NCBI GenBank assembly: GCA_903880855.1
Contig: CAIRQX010000039.1
Span: 1 to 64,000 of the forward strand
Source of the DNA: an uncultured Burkholderiales bacterium
Lineage (GTDB): Bacteria; Pseudomonadota; Gammaproteobacteria; Burkholderiales; Burkholderiaceae_C
Length of the DNA: 64,000 bases
Direction: 5' to 3'
The notes beneath the pieces are model-generated. The model searched no databases and had not been told where the DNA came from. It saw only the letters and a program-made list of their open reading frames with translations. Shown here one piece after another: positions 21,637 to 32,280 of the stretch; the first letter of the stretch is position 1, and every line of letters starts with the position of its first letter. The position numbers and the translations under genes are program-made.

Positions 21637-23073
21637 ATGACCACCCTTCTTATTCATCGCGCCCAACACCTAGCCACCCAAGACGATCACGACACCGAAC
21701 TCCAAGGTGCTTCGGTTTTAGTACGTGACGGACGTATCGCACGTATCTTTACCAAAGACGAGCCGCTAGATGCATGGTTGGCAGATAACCCAGTGGATGA
21801 AGTAATCGATGCGCACAAGCATGTTGTGATACCCGGCATGGTGAACACGCATCACCACATGGTGCAATGCCTCACACGTGCAGTACCGCAGGTTCAAAAC
21901 GCGGAGTTGTTTTCTTGGTTGAAAGGCTTGTATCCCATATGGCTAGGGCTAACACCAGAAATGGTGCGCGTCTCAAACCAAGTAGCGATGGCTGAATTAA
22001 TGCTATCTGGGTGCACAACCACCAGTGACCATCTCTATATCTATCCCAACGGCGTCAGATTGGATGACAGCATAGAAGCAGCACATACGATTGGCATGCG
22101 ATTCACTGCAACACGCGGCAGTATGAGCGTGGGGGAATCACAGGGTGGTCTTCCTCCCGATCAAGCCGTTGAAAAAGAACCCTTCATATTGAAAGAAACC
22201 CAACGCCTAATAGAGACTTGGCATGACGCCAGTTTTGGTTCCATGACCCATGTAGCAGTTGCACCTTGCTCCCCATTCAGTGTGAGCCAAGATTTAATGC
22301 GAGAGTCTGCCAAATTAGCCCGTGCTTATGGCGTGCGCTTGCACACGCACTTGGCAGAAAACGACCACGATGTCGCTTACACCCAAGAAAAATTCAATTG
22401 CACGCCTGCGCAATATGCGCAAGATTTAGACTGGGTAGGCAATGACGTGTGGCATGCCCATTGCGTCAAGTTAGACGACGATGGCGCATATCTTTTTGCC
22501 AAAACACGCACAGGCTTAGCGCACTGCCCTTGCAGCAATATGCGACTTGCAAGCGGCATATTGCCACTGCGCCAGTTTCTCGATATGGGCGTCCCTATTG
22601 GTTTAGGCGTAGACGGCAGCGCTAGCAATGACGCAGGGCATATGTTGAACGAAGCGCGTCAAGCCATGCTGCTTGCGCGTGTGGGGCGTGGAAACCAGCC
22701 ACCGCAAACTAAGAATGGACAAACATTTTTCGGTTGCGATGTAGGACCTTCGGAGATGACGCCACGCGACGCTATTCGTTTAGCAACGCGCGGAGGCGCT
22801 GAGGTCCTAGGGCGTTCCCATGAGATTGGCCAGATCAAAGTGGGCTATTGCGCCGACTTCGCAATGTTTCGCACCGACACACTCAGCATGGCAGGTGGTG
22901 CAGTGCATGACCCCTTAGGAGCTTTGCTTTTGTGCTCTAGCGATAACGCTGACTACACAATTGTGAATGGGCGGGTGATAGTGCGAGAAGGCCAACTGAA
23001 TTCAGTAGATATCAATAAATTAATAGAAAAGCATAATAATTTTTCGATTGAATTGGCTAAAATTAGTTATTAA
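21637..23073 (+). CDS. 8-oxoguanine deaminase (amidohydrolase family)
   Basis: This enzyme is predicted to deaminate 8-oxoguanine to urate, feeding the purine breakdown genes that follow. The amidohydrolase metal site is visible: NTHHHMVQ (about residue 69), LHTHLAENDHD, WHAHCVKLDDDG and GLGVDGSASNDAGHM. The track starts at a TTG (21628); ATG 21637 (MTTLLIHRAQHLA) is more likely. The sequence resembles the AtzB/TrzN-like subgroup that includes 8-oxoguanine deaminase; a related guanine deaminase or triazine hydrolase is the alternative. Its position beside xdh/puuD genes supports the purine role. Confidence 0.8.
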   Translation: MTTLLIHRAQHLATQDDHDTELQGASVLVRDGRIARIFTKDEPLDAWLADNPVDEVIDAHKHVVIPGMVNTHHHMVQCLTRAVPQVQNAELFSWLKGLYPIWLGLTPEMVRVSNQVAMAELMLSGCTTTSDHLYIYPNGVRLDDSIEAAHTIGMRFTATRGSMSVGESQGGLPPDQAVEKEPFILKETQRLIETWHDASFGSMTHVAVAPCSPFSVSQDLMRESAKLARAYGVRLHTHLAENDHDVAYTQEKFNCTPAQYAQDLDWVGNDVWHAHCVKLDDDGAYLFAKTRTGLAHCPCSNMRLASGILPLRQFLDMGVPIGLGVDGSASNDAGHMLNEARQAMLLARVGRGNQPPQTKNGQTFFGCDVGPSEMTPRDAIRLATRGGAEVLGRSHEIGQIKVGYCADFAMFRTDTLSMAGGAVHDPLGALLLCSSDNADYTIVNGRVIVREGQLNSVDINKLIEKHNNFSIELAKISY

Positions 23074-23107
23074 TAATTTAAAATGAATTTAGCTAAAATG
23101 GCTAAAA
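23056..23107 (+). promoter_or_regulatory. Candidate autoregulatory operator of the TA pair (GCTAAAA repeats)
   Basis: Three direct copies of GCTAAAA occur at 23056, 23092 and 23101, just upstream of the antitoxin start and its AGGGAGG ribosome binding site; the first lies inside the deaminase 3' end. Phd/YefM antitoxins usually bind short repeats overlapping their own promoter. That these repeats are the operator is inference. Confidence 0.4.
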
Positions 23108-23124
23108 ATAAACAGGGAGGTCAA

Positions 23125-23394
23125 ATGCACATTACAGCGACAGAAGCTAAAAATAAGTTTGGCAGCATTTGCTCTGCTGCAAAACGTTCGCCTGTCTTCG
23201 TGGAAAAAGCGGGACAAGTCGATACTGTAATTCTCTCGGTTGATCAATACCGCGCACTTCAAGCCAACCAAAACACCAATTCCTTCGCCAATCGCAAAAA
23301 AGAATTTGAGATGCAATATCGCGAATGGATAGTTGCTCAAAATAACTGGGTTGATGGACAGGGTATCCCTGGCGCAGATCTACGTCCTTGGTAG
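23125..23394 (+). CDS. Phd/YefM-type antitoxin of a Phd-CcdB hybrid pair
   Basis: The track starts at 23083, but ATG 23125 follows a strong AGGGAGG ribosome binding site. The 89-residue product begins MHITATEAKNKFGSICSAA, a Phd/YefM DNA-binding fold signature, followed by VDTVILSVDQYRALQ. The C-terminal half is charged and ends GIPGADLRPW, which looks like the extreme C-terminus of CcdA (FADENRDW), the segment that binds CcdB. The stop is 6 bp before the toxin start. So this antitoxin appears to join a Phd DNA-binding head to a CcdA-like tail. Confidence 0.85.
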   Translation: MHITATEAKNKFGSICSAAKRSPVFVEKAGQVDTVILSVDQYRALQANQNTNSFANRKKEFEMQYREWIVAQNNWVDGQGIPGADLRPW

Positions 23395-23400
23395 TTAGTG

Positions 23401-23715
23401 ATGGCGCATTTTGACGTCTATGTGAATCCAAGTGAAAGCGCTTCAAAGGGAATTCCTTATGTTGTGGTCATGCAGAGCGACTTGCTTGAGTCTTTAGCGA
23501 CCCGCATGACGATTCCACTTGCAAGCATTGAGTTTGCATCTAAAGCGCCTGAAAAACTTTGTCCGACTGTCCTTGTAAATGGCCAACTTTTGCGCGCATT
23601 AGCCCATTACGCCGCTCCGCTTCCCTCAAAAAATTTGAAGAAAGTCGTCAGCAATCTTTCCAGATCTTCAGATGCCCTTATCGGCGCTATGGATGCGGTC
23701 TTTGCTGGGGTTTAA
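23401..23715 (+). CDS. ccdB: CcdB-family toxin
   Basis: This 104-residue protein matches CcdB along its length: FDVYVNPSE, YVVVMQSDLLESLATRMTIPLAS, LCPTVLVNGQLLRALAHYAAPLP and AIGAMDAVFAGV-like end. CcdB poisons DNA gyrase through its C-terminal helix. The terminal residues read FAGV where F-plasmid CcdB has FWGI; the Vibrio fischeri homologue also lacks the Trp, so toxicity is not excluded. ATG 23401 is preferred to the track's GTG 23398. The gene is convergent with modC, 4 bp apart. Confidence 0.87.
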   Translation: MAHFDVYVNPSESASKGIPYVVVMQSDLLESLATRMTIPLASIEFASKAPEKLCPTVLVNGQLLRALAHYAAPLPSKNLKKVVSNLSRSSDALIGAMDAVFAGV

Positions 23716-23719
23716 GGTG

Positions 23720-24838
23720 TCATTTCACCAAAGCAACTGACTTCACTTGCGCCCAAGCCTGCGTTCCAACTTGTAACCCTAAATCGTGCACACCACGCGC
23801 AGTTACGCGCGCAAGCAAAAACACCTCACCACAACGCAAGCGCAACAACACTTGCGAGGGATGAGACTCTGCATGGATGGACTCGACTACACAAGGTAAA
23901 TGGTTTTGAATACTGGTGTTTTGAGCCTCTTCTAGGGTAATACTCACATCGCGTGCCAACACGCGTAAGCGCACTGGTTGACCTATTTGCAAGCCACTAT
24001 CGCGTACCCATATAGATGCAACTGTTGGGTTGCCTTCAACTGCCATACCTGAACTTGCTTTAGATATACGCACTTGCGCCAAGTGCCACTGCTCATCTAA
24101 GGCCTGCACATGGCCCTCAATCAGCGCGCCCACATCGTCACCCACCACCAAAGGAAGATCTATATTGGAGAGCACCTCAGAGACAGGCCCTACTGCGCGC
24201 ACTTGTCCAGACTCCATCACTACCAAGGTATCGGCTAATCGCACCACTTCGTCCGCAGCGTGAGTGATGTAGAGCATAGGAATTTTTAATTCATCGCATA
24301 ACTTTTCAAGCCACGGCAAGATGTCTTGTTTGCGAGCAGGGTCAAGGGAGGCAAGTGGCTCATCTAGCAAAAGCAATTTGGGTTGCGTCGCTAATGCACG
24401 TGCAATCGCTACACGTTGACGCTCTCCGCCAGAAAGTTGGTTGGTGCTTCTTTGAAGCAAATCGCCTATTCCCAACAAATTAATTACTTCGTCTAAAACA
24501 ACTTCTTGGTTGGGCGCTTTGCTACGCTTCAATCCATAGGTCAAGTTTGCCGCGACATCTAAGTGTGCAAATAAAGAGGCTTCTTGGAACACATAACCCA
24601 AGGGTCTTAGGGAAGTGGGCAGGCTTACCCCTAGCGAATCGTCTTGCCAAACATCTGAACCCACTTGCACCCGTCCAAGCGCTTGCGTCTCAAGCCCAGC
24701 AACGCAACGTAACAAAGTGGTTTTGCCAGAACCTGATGGACCGTAAATAACACTGATTCCCTGCACAGGCAGTTGCAGGTCCACTTTCAAATTGAAACTG
24801 CTACGCGCGAGATCGAGTTGTAATCGGATTTCACTCAT
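23720..24838 (-). CDS. modC: Molybdate ABC transporter ATP-binding protein
   Basis: This 372-residue ATPase has Walker [17 protein letters not shown], signature [15 protein letters not shown] and Walker [17 protein letters not shown], then a C-terminal TOBE (molybdate-binding) domain of about 130 residues. It energises ModB. It overlaps modB by 4 bp and is the last gene of the apparent xdhAB-xdhC-puuD-modABC run, so it would deliver Mo for the xanthine dehydrogenase cofactor. Confidence 0.94.
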
Positions 24839-25524
24839 ATTGCTGTTTGCGCCCTGCGCCTGCTAACCCAAGAAAGCACCAGAAGCACCACAAAAGAAAA
24901 CACCAACATTGCACCAGCCAGACCATGCGCTTGCGCGTACTTCATAGCTTCTACATGCCCATAAATTTGGGTCGAGACCACACGCGTTTTATCTGGGATA
25001 TTTCCGCCGATCATGAGCACCACACCAAACTCTCCAACGGTGTGCGCAAAACTCAACATGGCCGCCATCACAAACCCAGGTTTTGCCAACGGAATTGCCA
25101 CTGTAAAAAATGCGTCTAACTTATTCGCGCGCAAAGTAGCGGCGACCTCCATAGGGCGTGAACCCATCGCTTCAAAAGCATTGACCAAAGGTTGGACCGC
25201 AAAGGGCAAGGAGTAAATCATCGAACCCAACACCAAACCCGAAAAGCTAAATGCCAATGAACCCCAGCCTGCCCAATGTGTGAATTGCCCAACAGGCCCG
25301 AGTGGTCCCAATGCAATTAGCAAATAAAACCCCAGCACGGTCGGAGGCAAAACCAACGGCAACGCCACCAAGGCAGCGATAGGTGCACGCCATCTAGATT
25401 GCGTATGCGCCAACCACCAAGCAATAGGCGTTGCCAGAAAAAGCAACAACACCGTGGTGACGCTAGCCAATTGCAGCGTCAACAAAATGGCGGCTAAGTC
25501 TTCGGAAGTTAAATGCATAGCCAC
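24835..25524 (-). CDS. modB: Molybdate ABC transporter permease
   Basis: This 229-residue inner-membrane protein has five to six helices and the permease loop [30 protein letters not shown] (EAA motif). [19 protein letters not shown] is specific for ModB. It overlaps modC by 4 bp and follows modA by 4 bp. Confidence 0.95.
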
Positions 25525-25528
25525 AACT

Positions 25529-27545
<2,017 letters not shown>

Positions 27546-27582
27546 TTTTGTTTTAACGCCTTTAAATACTTTTCAATTATTT

Positions 27583-28389
27583 TTAATCCTGTTGCAGGAG
27601 TTGCGCTGCTACAGCCACAGCAATGACTTCGGGTTCTTTGCCATGAATGCCCTCCACACCAATTGGACAAGTGATGAACGCCAATTCTTCAGCGCTAAAC
27701 CCTTTGGCCTCTAAGCGGTGTTGAAACGTCGCCCATTTGGTTTTGCTACCGATCAGTCCTACAAATTTCAAATCACCCTGCAAGCGTTGCCGCTTGAGAC
27801 AAGCCGCCACCACATCTAGATCTTCTGCATGGCTAAAGCTCATGATCAACACTGAAACGCCACTTGGCAAAGCTTCAACTGCAGCATGTACAGGATCCGA
27901 GTGGTCACACACCACATTCGCCGGAAGCTGCGCAGGGAAAATTTCATCTCTACTGTCTATCCATTGCACCTGAAACGGCAGGCTGCTCAACACATTCACC
28001 AAGGCATGTCCTACATGTCCTCCACCAAACAATGCCAATGGCTTGGCTTGGTTGGGTAAACGTTGCCGCAACATGGGCATGTCCGTCTGCGAGATGTGCT
28101 CAAACTTCAAATGCACCACACCACCACAACATTGTCCCAATGCTGGACCCAATGCGTATCGGTTAACAAGCGCGCCTTCATGTGGACTCGAGCTGAGCAA
28201 AGATCTCCCCTCAGCAATGGCTTGGAATTCCAAATGTCCGCCACCAATGGTGTTGACCAAGGTCTGAGGGAACACCGCCATCCAAGCGCCTACTTCCCGA
28301 GGTCCAGAACCTTCCACGCTAGCAACTGTGACCAACACGCCAGGGGCATGCTGAAGCTGGTTCCATAACTCGGCGGTATGACGCGGCAC
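27583..28389 (-). CDS. xdhC: Xanthine dehydrogenase accessory protein XdhC
   Basis: This 268-residue protein helps insert the sulfurated molybdenum cofactor into XdhB. The N-terminal XdhC/CoxI domain shows VTVASVEGSGPREVGAWM and NTIGGGHLEFQA, and the C-terminal Rossmann domain shows LALFGGGHVGHALVNVL. It follows xdhB by 51 bp and precedes puuD by 37 bp. Confidence 0.94.
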   Translation of the reverse strand: MPRHTAELWNQLQHAPGVLVTVASVEGSGPREVGAWMAVFPQTLVNTIGGGHLEFQAIAEGRSLLSSSPHEGALVNRYALGPALGQCCGGVVHLKFEHISQTDMPMLRQRLPNQAKPLALFGGGHVGHALVNVLSSLPFQVQWIDSRDEIFPAQLPANVVCDHSDPVHAAVEALPSGVSVLIMSFSHAEDLDVVAACLKRQRLQGDLKFVGLIGSKTKWATFQHRLEAKGFSAEELAFITCPIGVEGIHGKEPEVIAVAVAAQLLQQD

Positions 28390-28440
28390 GCGAATGTAGG
28401 GCGAAGCGAAAGAGACTGGACAAGCAAAGCGCTAACGCGC

Positions 28441-30804
28441 TTAAGCTTGTGCGACTTCCGCTTTCACCTTCTCACAAGCCATCAAGATGCGCTCAGGCGT
28501 GGCAGGCGCATCTAGATGCACCACTGCTTTGTGCTCAGCGCTTGCAGCGACGGCATCGCGCAAAGCAAAGAAAGTAGATAAGCCCAGCATCAGAGGTGGC
28601 TCACCCGTCGCTTTACTGTTGAATGGTGTGGGCTTCAAGTTGTAGCCGTCAAATAGTGTCACGTTGAAATGCTCTGGGATATCGCCAGCCACTGGGATCT
28701 TGTAAGTGCTCGGGCCATGCGTGAGCAACTTACCCTTCTTGTCCCAAATACATTCCTCCATGGTGAGCCATCCCATGCCTTGGACAAACGCGCCTTCGAT
28801 TTGGCCTTTGTCTAAGGCGGGGTTGATGCTCTTGCCCACGTCATGCACGATGTCCACGGCCTTGAGCCACCATTCACCGGTGCGCGTGTTGATTTCCACT
28901 TCACTCACCGCAGCGCCGTAGCAGTAGTAATAAAAAGCACGGCCATTCAGTTTGGCGAAGTCATATTTGATTTCAGGCGTCATGTAAAAACCTGTGACGC
29001 TCAATCCCACGCGGTCTAACCACGCTTGCTTGGTGACCTCTTCCCATTTCACTGACTTACCACCGCCATGCGCTTCGCTATTGGCAAAAGTAATGTCAGT
29101 TTCTGCGCAACCGAGCATGCGTGCGGCTACGGGCTTTAGTCGTTCACGCATTTGCGACGTGGCATTCATGATGGCTGCGCCGTTGATATCCGCGCCGCTT
29201 GAAGCAGAAGTAGCCGATGCGTTGGGAACTTTCTGTGAGTCAGTCGCAGTGATGCGCACTTTGTCGACGCTGATGCCCAAACCATCGGCACATACCTGCG
29301 CCATCTTGGTGTTGAGGCCTTGGCCCATCTCCGTGCCGCCATGGTTGCAACTCACGGAGCCATCCATGTAAACCACGAGCAAAGCGCCGCCTTGGTTCAA
29401 ATGGGTGGCGGTAAAGCTGATGCCAAACTTCAAAGGCACCAAAGCTAAGCCGCGCTTGCGGGTTTTGCTCTTGGCGTTAAAAGCTTGCACTGCCTTGCGG
29501 CGTTCTGCGTAATTGGATTCTTTTTCAACCTGCGCAATCACCTTGTCACCCACCCAGTCTTCTATCAACTGGTTGTATTGGGTGGTCATGGTGTCCGGCG
29601 TTCCACTGATAGCGGGATCTTGGTAGAGGTTGATTTTGCGAACATCCAAGGAGTCTTTGCCCAAAGTGGCGGCAATTTCGTCCATCACGGTTTCGATACC
29701 AAACATGCCTTGCGGTCCACCAAAACCACGGAAAGCAGTCGCGCTTTGGGTATTGGTTTTGCAGCGGTGGCTGATCAACTTCAAAGCGGGGATGTGGTAG
29801 ACGTTATCAATGTGCAAACAAGCGCGGTCATTGACGGGGCCAGAGTAGTCCGTGCTGTAACCGCAACGCGACATGAGAGTAATGTCTGCGCCCAAGATAC
29901 GGCCGTTATCGTCAAACCCTACTTCGTAGTCGATTCTGAAATCGTGGCGCTTACCAGTGATGGTCATGTCATCGTCGCGGTTCACCCGCAACTTCACAGG
30001 CTTTTGCAACTTGAAAGCTGCCAAGGCCGCGCTTTGGCTGAAGATGCTGGCATTGCCTTCTTTGCCGCCAAAACCACCACCCATACGACGGCAGATCACT
30101 TCCACGTCGTTGGTATGCAAATTCAGCGCATGGGCTGCTTCGCGTTGGTTGCCGTCGGGGTGCTGGGTAGACACATACAAAGTGAGTTGTCCGTCTTCTT
30201 TGGGCACCGCATACGTGATCTGCCCCTCTAAATAGAACTGCTCTTGCTGCCCTGTTCGGGTCGTGCCTTTGATGGTGTGGGGTGCTTTGGCAATGGCGCC
30301 GGCAGCGTCGCCGCGGGTGATGCCTTTTGGCGGCATGATGAAACTACTGGCCGCCATCGCTTCTTCAATGGTCAAAACAGGCGTGAGTTCTTTGACCAAC
30401 ACCTTGGCTTTGTGGGCAACTTCGCGCGCATAGAGCATGTCGCGCGCAACGACCACCGCCACAGCTTGGCCGATAAATTCCACTTTGCCATCTGCTAAGA
30501 ATGGGTCGTCATGGATGATCGGGCCACAGTTGTTTTCGCCTGGAATATCTTTGGCGGTGTAGACCGCCACCACGCCGTGTTCTTTCAGAATAGCTTCGCG
30601 GTCAATGCCGTCGCCAATCAACTCGCCATGCGCTACGGGCGACAAAATCAACGCAGCATAAAGAGTGCCGGCTAATTCAGGAATGTCGTCGATATAAGTT
30701 GCTGTACCCGTCACATGCAAGTGTGCAGATTCGTGCACCAGCTCTTTGCCCTGCTGCACGTTGGTGGCAGGCAAAAGATTTTTAAGGTTGGTAGGAGCGT
30801 TCAT
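28441..30804 (-). CDS. xdhB: Xanthine dehydrogenase molybdopterin-binding subunit
   Basis: This 787-residue subunit carries the molybdenum site that oxidises hypoxanthine and xanthine to urate. Visible are the N-terminal HESAHLHVTGTATYIDDIPE, the Moco segment RRMGGGFGGKEGNASIFSQ, GFGGPQGMFGIETVMDEIA and the late region DVGKSINPALDKGQIEGAFVQGMGW. The length fits the XdhB half of the bacterial A/B enzyme. The start is directly adjacent to the xdhA stop (TAAATG), indicating coupled translation and a 1:1 complex. Confidence 0.96.
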   Translation of the reverse strand: MNAPTNLKNLLPATNVQQGKELVHESAHLHVTGTATYIDDIPELAGTLYAALILSPVAHGELIGDGIDREAILKEHGVVAVYTAKDIPGENNCGPIIHDDPFLADGKVEFIGQAVAVVVARDMLYAREVAHKAKVLVKELTPVLTIEEAMAASSFIMPPKGITRGDAAGAIAKAPHTIKGTTRTGQQEQFYLEGQITYAVPKEDGQLTLYVSTQHPDGNQREAAHALNLHTNDVEVICRRMGGGFGGKEGNASIFSQSAALAAFKLQKPVKLRVNRDDDMTITGKRHDFRIDYEVGFDDNGRILGADITLMSRCGYSTDYSGPVNDRACLHIDNVYHIPALKLISHRCKTNTQSATAFRGFGGPQGMFGIETVMDEIAATLGKDSLDVRKINLYQDPAISGTPDTMTTQYNQLIEDWVGDKVIAQVEKESNYAERRKAVQAFNAKSKTRKRGLALVPLKFGISFTATHLNQGGALLVVYMDGSVSCNHGGTEMGQGLNTKMAQVCADGLGISVDKVRITATDSQKVPNASATSASSGADINGAAIMNATSQMRERLKPVAARMLGCAETDITFANSEAHGGGKSVKWEEVTKQAWLDRVGLSVTGFYMTPEIKYDFAKLNGRAFYYYCYGAAVSEVEINTRTGEWWLKAVDIVHDVGKSINPALDKGQIEGAFVQGMGWLTMEECIWDKKGKLLTHGPSTYKIPVAGDIPEHFNVTLFDGYNLKPTPFNSKATGEPPLMLGLSTFFALRDAVAASAEHKAVVHLDAPATPERILMACEKVKAEVAQA

Positions 30805-32280
30805 TTATGCCACCTCCGAAGTGTGTTCTTCAATAAATTCAAGTACCAAATTTCTGGCCACTAAAGCGCGGTAGGCCCAGGTAGCGCGCAATCCGTCGCG
30901 TGCAGTGAAACTCGCAGTAATTGCCGCATCAAGATCTGCGGCTTTCACATCGCTAGGCGCTTTGCCTTCTAACACTGCCTCTAACTTAGGCGCTCTGCAA
31001 GGTGATGGTGCCAAGCCGTTGTAGGCCAATTTCACGCCACTTAACTTGCCCGCTTTGAGCGAGTAAGTGATGGCAGCACAAGTAGCTGAAATATCTTGCT
31101 CGAACCGCTTGCTGATTTTGTGAGCGCGGAACACCTGTCCAGAAACGGGCTTGGGCAATTCAATCGCCTCGATAAATTCACCCGCTTCAAGCACGTTTTT
31201 CTTCATGCCGGTGTAGAAGTTGTCTAAAGACACGCGCCGGCTCTTGTCGCCGCGGCGCAAGACCAAGGTGGCACCAAGTGCCATCAAGCAAGGCATGGTG
31301 TCACCGATCGGTGATCCATTGGCAATGTTGCCAGCAAGTGTGGCGGTGGAACGGATGGGCGGTGAGCCAAAGCGTCGCAACACTTCTGCAAAGTCGGGGT
31401 AGGCCTTGGCGACTAAGGTTTCAACTTGGGTCAAGGAGACCGCTGCACCGATGCGCCAAGCTTTGTCCGTCTCACCGATTTGGCGCAACTCTTTGACGTT
31501 GCCTAAATACATGATGTGATCTGGCCTAGAAAACTGCTTGTTGACCTGCAAACCAATTTCAGTGCTTCCAGCCAGCAAAGTGGTGGTGGGGTGCTTGACC
31601 AAATAGTCAGCCACTTCGCTCAAGGTGCTGGGCGAGACAAACTCGTTGCCCTTCTTGGTGCGCACGACGGGCTGAACAATAATCTCGCCGTCCAAACTCA
31701 TGGTCGGCGTGTTGGGGCGTTTGATTTCTTTGAGCAAAGCGATGTCCGCGCTGTCGTCGATTTTCAAAGCGGCTTTTTTCTCGCAGGCTTTGGCAGCTGC
31801 GTCGATGATGGGTGCGTAACCCGTGCAGCGGCATAAATTGCCGCTCAAGGCGTCGGTGATTTCGATGCGAGAAGGTTGTGTATTGGTTTGGACCATGTTG
31901 ACCAAACTCATCACGATGCCGGGGGTACAAAAGCCGCACTGTGAACCATGGCACTTGACCATTTCTTCTTGCACAGGGTGGAGCGTTCCATCGGGCTTTT
32001 TCAAACTCTCCACGGTTTTGACAGACTTGCCGTCAAGCGATGGCAGCAATTGGATACAGGCATTGGTCGCTACGTAGTCCACGCCCGTCCCTGCGGCATC
32101 AAGTTCGCCCACCATCACCACACACGCGCCACAGTCTCCCTCAGCGCAGCCTTCCTTGGTTCCGGTGCGCTGTAGTTGTTCGCGCAGATAGTCCAAAACG
32201 GTGGTGGTGCGGCGTTTGCCTTGGGCTTCAACGATTTGTCCGTCGAGCACAAAGCGCACGGTGTTGGTGGCTTGGGTCAT
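30805..32280 (-). CDS. xdhA: Xanthine dehydrogenase small subunit (2Fe-2S and FAD)
   Basis: This 491-residue subunit holds two 2Fe-2S clusters and FAD. The first cluster is in EGCAEGDCGACVVMV, the second in GSQCGFCTPGIVMS and SGNLCRCTGYAPI, and the FAD domain contains TTTLLAGSTEIGLQVN and LAGNIANGSPIGDTMP. It is the first gene of the minus-strand run. A 119-bp gap separates it from uraH and contains a GTATACA element. Confidence 0.96.
   Translation of the reverse strand: MTQATNTVRFVLDGQIVEAQGKRRTTTVLDYLREQLQRTGTKEGCAEGDCGACVVMVGELDAAGTGVDYVATNACIQLLPSLDGKSVKTVESLKKPDGTLHPVQEEMVKCHGSQCGFCTPGIVMSLVNMVQTNTQPSRIEITDALSGNLCRCTGYAPIIDAAAKACEKKAALKIDDSADIALLKEIKRPNTPTMSLDGEIIVQPVVRTKKGNEFVSPSTLSEVADYLVKHPTTTLLAGSTEIGLQVNKQFSRPDHIMYLGNVKELRQIGETDKAWRIGAAVSLTQVETLVAKAYPDFAEVLRRFGSPPIRSTATLAGNIANGSPIGDTMPCLMALGATLVLRRGDKSRRVSLDNFYTGMKKNVLEAGEFIEAIELPKPVSGQVFRAHKISKRFEQDISATCAAITYSLKAGKLSGVKLAYNGLAPSPCRAPKLEAVLEGKAPSDVKAADLDAAITASFTARDGLRATWAYRALVARNLVLEFIEEHTSEVA

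What the first reader, a model, noticed from the sequence alone, without database searches (positions are those of the whole stretch)
23056..23715. Hybrid toxin-antitoxin pair: Phd-type antitoxin with a CcdA-like tail paired to a CcdB toxin
Classical CcdB is neutralised by CcdA, a ribbon-helix-helix protein. Here the gene before CcdB encodes a Phd/YefM DNA-binding head (MHITATEAKNKFG), yet its last residues GIPGADLRPW resemble the CcdB-binding end of CcdA (FADENRDW). This suggests a domain swap in which the DNA-binding half was exchanged and the toxin-binding tail kept. The toxin end FAGV differs from FWGI of F-plasmid CcdB. The pair sits inside a purine catabolism region on the opposite strand from its neighbours. 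Triplicate GCTAAAA repeats may be the operator.
Basis: partly seen in the sequence, partly recalled or inferred. Interest (0 to 1): 0.75.

Follow-up and report, generated by a model that had tools for sequence, protein, structure and literature searches.

The report
CcdB toxin with a domain-swapped antitoxin
A bacterial chromosome carries a CcdB-type toxin (a family known for poisoning DNA gyrase) whose antidote joins the usual toxin-gripping tail to a DNA-binding head from an unrelated antitoxin family; the head and its DNA switch appear to have been replaced once in an ancestor and inherited by many related bacteria, a clean natural example of how such modules are rewired.

Summary
Window 23125-23394 encodes an 89-aa antitoxin with a Phd/YefM head; 23401-23715 encodes a 104-aa CcdB (Pfam E 1.6e-25). 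Pfam CcdA matches 20 of 30 CcdB-paired Phd relatives and 0 of 33 Phd proteins without CcdB. Two relatives pass both curated cut-offs in one protein. The window protein alone does not score significantly for CcdA; the case rests on its family.

The pair recurs: 225 related stretches in the GTDB set; all 80 loci kept are Betaproteobacteria. Phd-paired CcdBs form one clade among CcdBs with ordinary RHH-CcdA, so the head was probably swapped once. A candidate operator, TTRGCTAAAATRGCYAA (window 23089-23105), lies within 2 mismatches before 84 of 90 phd-ccdB and 0 of 95 rhh-ccdB operons, over a -10-like TAAAAT. The "triplicate GCTAAAA" is mostly this site.

AlphaFold did not resolve the tail on the toxin. 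Toxicity, neutralisation and DNA binding are inferred. No held paper found reports the pair; Leplae 2011 could not be read.

The parts
23070..23099 (+). Promoter-like site: TTAATA (23070-23075), 18-nt spacer, TAAAAT (23094-23099)
   Evidence: Consensus scan, 9 of 12 (shuffles give a mean of 1.4 such sites per 1000 nt, so weak alone); TAAAAT is near-invariant in 86 aligned relatives
23088..23106 (+). Candidate operator: inverted repeat TTTAGC-N7-GCTAAA; conserved core TTRGCTAAAATRGCYAA at 23089-23105
   Evidence: 84 of 90 phd-ccdB loci within 2 mismatches, 0 of 95 rhh-ccdB loci; only perfect match in the own genome; arms shown
23115..23120 (+). Shine-Dalgarno GGGAGG, 4 nt before the ATG
   Evidence: Sequence
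23125..23394 (+). Antitoxin gene, 89 aa, hybrid Phd head plus CcdA-type tail, stop TAG included
   Evidence: purifying selection among relatives, median dN/dS about 0.05
23125..23286 (+). Phd/YefM dimerisation and DNA-binding head, residues 1-54
   Evidence: PF02604 residues 2-54, 31.2 bits; predicted fold matches Phd/YefM-type antitoxins
23284..23391 (+). CcdA-type CcdB-binding tail, residues 54-89
   Evidence: Family-level; the window protein alone is not significant
23401..23715 (+). CcdB toxin gene, 104 aa
   Evidence: PF01845 E 1.6e-25; V. fischeri CcdB by sequence and by predicted fold, TMt 0.86 to 3tcj_B

Best explanation
A chromosomal type II toxin-antitoxin operon. The toxin is a CcdB close to that of V. 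fischeri, expected to poison DNA gyrase. The antitoxin is a domain-swap hybrid: a Phd/YefM dimerisation and DNA-binding head joined to a CcdA-type C-terminal tail that binds and neutralises the CcdB dimer. The head is expected to repress the operon by binding an inverted repeat at 23088-23106 that covers a -10-like box. The head, most likely together with its promoter-operator, replaced the ancestral ribbon-helix-helix head once in a Burkholderiales ancestor, while tail and toxin stayed together. Shown: both protein families, tail homology at family level, conserved pairing, a single clade, operator conservation, purifying selection. Inferred: toxicity, gyrase as target, tail-toxin contact, binding of the repeat by the head, autorepression, and joint transfer of head and operator.
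For: PF02604 and PF01845 matches. 20 of 30 paired Phds also match CcdA, 0 of 33 unpaired. L051 and L176 pass both gathering cut-offs, with CcdA ending at profile position 71 of 71. Tail profile comparison 92%; end-anchored register z 6.8. Residues: F61 at CcdA W44 (F in 89 of 89 Phd tails), G80 at G63, R87 at R70, W89 at W72; a W44L/F65G CcdA double mutant is the published binding-defective control (PMC9555053). CcdB follows in the relatives. Phd-paired CcdBs are one clade. Operator. dN/dS about 0.05 and 0.15. Head fold Phd/YefM, toxin fold CcdB.
Against: The window antitoxin alone has no CcdA hit and only 2.6 bits with a CcdA-tail HMM. AlphaFold of the fused pair left residues 81-93 under pLDDT 50, so the complex is not seen. 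The position of CcdA F65 is proline here and in 78 of 89 Phd tails, though also in 22 of 89 RHH-CcdAs. The CcdB tree has 105 columns and weak deep branches. No activity data exist for these genes.
Confidence: 0.87

Rival explanations
1. Convergence rather than swap: a Phd antitoxin adopted a CcdB toxin and evolved a CcdA-like tail on its own, because any peptide binding the same CcdB groove would come to resemble CcdA.
For: The tails are short and divergent, and the window protein itself is not significantly CcdA-like. Some resemblance could come from shared binding constraints.
Against: The match is ungapped, runs to the last residue and covers about 30-36 positions in a single register. Two proteins pass the CcdA cut-off. 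Phd-paired CcdBs lie inside the RHH-CcdA-paired toxins, so an ancestor with a CcdA tail was at hand.
Confidence: 0.08
2. The antitoxin works through its Phd head or a new mode, and the tail resemblance is not functional; CcdB is neutralised at another surface.
For: AlphaFold did not place the tail on the toxin; no binding data.
Against: The tail is the most distinctive conserved part: F61, W68, N73, L86, R87, P88 and W89 are invariant in 46 relatives, and the tail is absent from Phds without CcdB. [quoted passage not shown]
Confidence: 0.04
3. Chance neighbours: a Phd gene that happens to precede an unrelated ccdB.
For: Phd genes are common in this family (over 90 matches in 31 genomes).
Against: The pairing is conserved in the loci examined across many genera, with close or slightly overlapping genes and a tail found only in paired Phds.
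Confidence: 0.01

Closest known systems
ccdAB (F plasmid type, and V. fischeri CcdB)
   Same: CcdB toxin; antitoxin gene first; antitoxin with a CcdA-type C-terminal tail ending in an aromatic residue
   Different: The DNA-binding head is Phd/YefM instead of ribbon-helix-helix, and the candidate operator is different
phd-doc and yefM-yoeB
   Same: Phd/YefM head, inverted-repeat candidate operator near the -10
   Different: The toxin is CcdB, not Doc or YoeB, and the tail is CcdA-like instead of a Doc- or YoeB-binding tail
PanA antitoxins carrying a Phd-C motif (NetFlax, PMC10440598)
   Same: A linear neutralising motif moved onto another antitoxin body; same modular principle, tested there by experiment
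   Different: There the Doc-neutralising motif sits on a Panacea domain; here the CcdB-neutralising motif sits on a Phd head
Phd with the MazF-like SMa0917 toxin (PMC2701414)
   Same: Phd antitoxin paired with a toxin of the wider MazF/CcdB fold
   Different: SMa0917 is an Alphaproteobacterial MazF-like family of predicted mRNA interferases, not CcdB, and no CcdA tail was described

Membership tests
CcdB toxin (PF01845) | Match to the CcdB profile over its whole length above the cut-off | tested here: met
   89.7 bits against 28.6, profile 2-101 of 101
CcdB toxin (PF01845) | CcdB fold | tested here: met
   Toxin half of the model against 3tcj_B, TMt 0.86, E 9.4e-9
CcdB toxin (PF01845) | Poisons DNA gyrase | not testable with these tools
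   No activity data; V. fischeri CcdB has a similar end without W99 and has solved complexes with GyrA fragments, 4elz and 4ely
Phd/YefM antitoxin (PF02604) | Match of the N-terminal head above the curated cut-off | tested here: met
   31.2 bits against 29.8; NCBIfam phd_fam 19.3 against 20.8, just under
Phd/YefM antitoxin (PF02604) | Phd/YefM fold | tested here: met
   Best matches of the model are RelB1/RelB2 of M. tuberculosis, YefM, a prevent-host-death protein and P1 Phd, probability about 1.0 but E-values 0.004 and weaker
CcdA antitoxin (PF07362) | Ribbon-helix-helix N-terminal head | tested here: not met
   The head is Phd/YefM
CcdA antitoxin (PF07362) | CcdB-binding C-terminal tail | tested here: met
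   Met at family level; window protein alone not significant
Type II toxin-antitoxin operon | Two small adjacent genes, antitoxin first, conserved as a pair | tested here: met
   6 nt apart; pair conserved in relatives
Type II toxin-antitoxin operon | Autoregulation by antitoxin binding to the promoter | tested here: inconclusive
   Conserved inverted repeat over a -10-like box; binding not tested
Type II toxin-antitoxin operon | Antitoxin binds and neutralises the toxin | tested here: inconclusive
   AlphaFold fusion model too weak in the tail end

The most novel reading that the evidence does not exclude
The CcdB-neutralising tail is a portable module that has been re-headed several times. 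It occurs behind Phd (one large clade), an AbrB-looking head with no Pfam match (4 loci), a DUF2281-like head (1 locus), an XRE-type HTH placed in front of a whole CcdA (L317 clear, L316 only HTH-like), and nearly headless in one case. In the Phd case the promoter-operator was exchanged together with the head in a single event, rewiring control while toxin recognition stayed fixed.
Probability: 0.65. Interest if true: 0.68.

Novelty: new variant of a known kind. Interest (0 to 1): 0.6.

Why it matters
Mix-and-match of toxins and antitoxins is known at the level of gene pairs. Here the breakpoint lies inside the antitoxin, and the toxin tree, the tail and the operator can each be read separately. 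CcdB is reported as one of the least promiscuous toxins (TASmania: 98.8% of the pairs of its CcdB cluster are with one CcdA cluster; PMC6504116), so a stable lineage with another head is unexpected. It makes direct tests possible: whether an RHH-CcdA tail works on a Phd head, whether conditional cooperativity survives a head swap, and whether head and operator moved together.

Tried and rejected
AlphaFold of the in-frame read-through (TAG read as Q) to place tail on toxin: mean pLDDT 74.5, pTM 0.52, residues 81-93 under 50; not usable for contacts. Tail profile against PDB sequences: only apparent chance hits (plant TGA3 and others), no CcdA. Window antitoxin by phmmer against PDB: apparent chance hits. 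Longer antitoxin start at 23083 rejected: its extra codons are the operator, and 23125 has the RBS. Three-direct-repeat operator rejected in favour of the inverted repeat. PADLOC: no match. Phage records: one weak CcdB match. Plasmids: one full-length antitoxin relative, on a Variovorax megaplasmid. Three 'unpaired' Phds with CcdA-like tails (L086, L075, L103) turned out to have a broken or contig-cut CcdB. Leplae 2011 is not held; phrase searches for phd-ccdB found nothing.

Full report
What is there. The antitoxin gene is 23125-23394 (89 aa) and the toxin gene 23401-23715 (104 aa), both on the + strand, 6 nt apart and in the same frame. Pfam gives PhdYeFM 1.9e-7 (31.2 bits, cut-off 29.8) for residues 2-54 of the antitoxin and CcdB 1.6e-25 for the whole toxin. 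NCBIfam has the antitoxin just under its phd_fam cut-off and gives a sub-cut-off match to its CcdB equivalog. The nearest solved toxin by sequence is V. fischeri CcdB. In AlphaFold models the antitoxin head matches Phd/YefM-type antitoxins and the toxin matches V. fischeri CcdB. The neighbours are a guanine-deaminase-like gene upstream on the same strand and modC/modB/modA downstream on the other, next to xanthine dehydrogenase and other purine genes (gene names from my reading of the translations). A related genome has the pair at the same site (L063), so the locus is shared by at least two related genomes.

Is the tail really CcdA-like? The window protein alone does not prove it: no CcdA hit in Pfam and 2.6 bits with a tail HMM. 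The family does. (a) Of 30 diverse CcdB-paired Phds, all match Phd and 20 also match CcdA (best E 2.2e-5); of 33 Phds not paired with CcdB, all match Phd and none matches CcdA. (b) L176 and L051 pass both curated cut-offs: Phd residues 2-63 and 2-60, CcdA residues 47-89 and 55-89, ending at the last CcdA profile position. (c) An HMM made only from RHH-CcdA tails gives paired Phds a mean of 8.4 bits, unpaired -1.5 and shuffled tails -1.8; the three best 'unpaired' proteins proved to be paired with a broken or contig-cut CcdB. (d) Aligned from the C-terminus without gaps, the two tail families score 21.1, against a shuffled mean of -31.8 (z 6.8, 0 of 20,000); every other register tried is negative. 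(e) In that register F61 of the window falls on CcdA W44 (F in 89 of 89 Phd tails), G80 on G63, R87 on R70 and W89 on W72. A W44L/F65G CcdA double mutant is a published binding-defective control (PMC9555053). The F65 position is mostly proline in the Phd tails, as in 22 of 89 RHH-CcdAs.

How common is it? A pattern scan of one genome per GTDB species gave 225 confirmed relatives, of which the best 80 were kept. They come from Limnohabitans, Rubrivivax, Hydrogenophaga, Roseateles, Acidovorax, Inhella and others, all Betaproteobacteria and nearly all named as Burkholderiales. In all 65 loci first parsed, CcdB sequence follows (some of it fragments or frameshifts: L072, L075, L086, L089), and 77 toxin genes were recovered from the 80 loci by HMM. 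Searching 399 genomes of the phylum with the antitoxin alignment, matches over residues 1-89 occur only in the window's own family; all others cover the head or little more. Among CcdB loci found without regard to the antitoxin, those from the window's relatives have 38 RHH and 19 Phd partners. The class loci have 29 RHH and no Phd, the first phylum loci 27 RHH and no Phd, and 60 further loci no Phd.

History. On a tree of 104 CcdBs the 29 Phd-paired toxins are one side of a branch (SH-aLRT 93; 96 in a larger tree), lying among RHH-CcdA-paired toxins. The simplest reading is one replacement of the head, with tail and toxin kept. The alignment has only 105 columns, so deep branches are weak, the root is not inferred, and the direction rests on the wider spread of the RHH form.

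Operator. Most phd-ccdB operons carry TTRGCTAAAATRGCYAA, nearly always 15-25 nt before the start codon: 84 of 90 within 2 mismatches, 0 of 95 rhh-ccdB operons (best 4 mismatches), and no shuffled sequence under 4. Flanking columns are nearly random. The window has a perfect copy at 23089-23105, part of a perfect 6-nt inverted repeat with a 7-nt spacer at 23088-23106. It is the only perfect site in the 2.8-Mb genome. The site contains TAAAAT, a plausible -10 box. That the site comes only with the Phd head suggests that head and promoter were exchanged together. This is inference, as is repression itself.

Selection. Median pairwise dN/dS among 11 Limnohabitans-type relatives is about 0.05 for the antitoxin and 0.15 for the toxin, so both genes appear to be under purifying selection.

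Mechanism. Most likely: Phd-type dimers bind the inverted repeat and block the promoter, alone or with toxin. The tails bind the CcdB dimer at its C-terminal helices and between its protomers, as CcdA does (described in PMC3460896), keeping it off gyrase. When the antitoxin is degraded, CcdB is free. Only the sequence-level steps are shown. AlphaFold on the fused pair did not settle the contact.

Compared with what is known. One review places the CcdB clan with RHH or AbrB-type antitoxins (PMC7354431), and a comparative survey places Phd with Doc, PIN, RelE and the MazF-like SMa0917 (PMC2701414). TASmania reports 98.8% of the pairs of its CcdB cluster with one CcdA cluster (PMC6504116). The principle that a linear neutralising motif can move between antitoxin bodies is established (PMC10440598). 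So this is a new variant of a known kind: neither a CcdA (head differs) nor an ordinary Phd (partner and tail differ), but expected to work like ccdAB. I could not read Leplae 2011, which may list such a pair.

Broader pattern. The same tail was seen behind other heads next to ccdB: DUF2281-like (L042), an AbrB-looking head without a Pfam match (L057, L307, L319, L328), and an HTH_3 domain in front of a CcdA (L317; L316 has a weaker HTH-like stretch). The AbrB-looking and HTH-CcdA toxins tested each form their own small group on the CcdB tree.

Noticed in passing
L042, L057, L307, L319, L328, L316, L317, L303 (antitoxin genes before ccdB): CcdA-type tail behind other heads: DUF2281-like, an AbrB-looking head without Pfam match, HTH_3 in front of a CcdA, and nearly headless.
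   Followed up: partly
L072 (same gene as L059), L075, L086: phd-ccdB pairs in which ccdB is interrupted (stop or frameshift) while the antitoxin stays intact, as expected if the toxin is costly; assembly errors are possible.
   Followed up: no
window 23053-23063: A second, partial operator-like copy (TTGGCTAAAAT) overlapping the end of the deaminase gene, also seen in degraded form in L063; might be a second binding site.
   Followed up: no
L041, L043, L044, L045, L048, L055, L058: A separate group of RHH-CcdAs ending in ADEHSTL-type tails, paired with CcdBs ending in a charged/aromatic RxW-type end instead of the usual GI/GV; toxin end and tail end seem to change together.
   Followed up: no
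L268 (NZ_CP070344.1, 162158-162424): The only full-length relative of the antitoxin in PLSDB lies on a 1.24-Mb Variovorax replicon and has no gene annotated in that table.
   Followed up: partly
window 23720-32280: Molybdate transporter genes (modA, modB, modC) lie directly beside xanthine dehydrogenase genes, a sensible grouping since that enzyme needs molybdenum cofactor (names from reading the translations).
   Followed up: no
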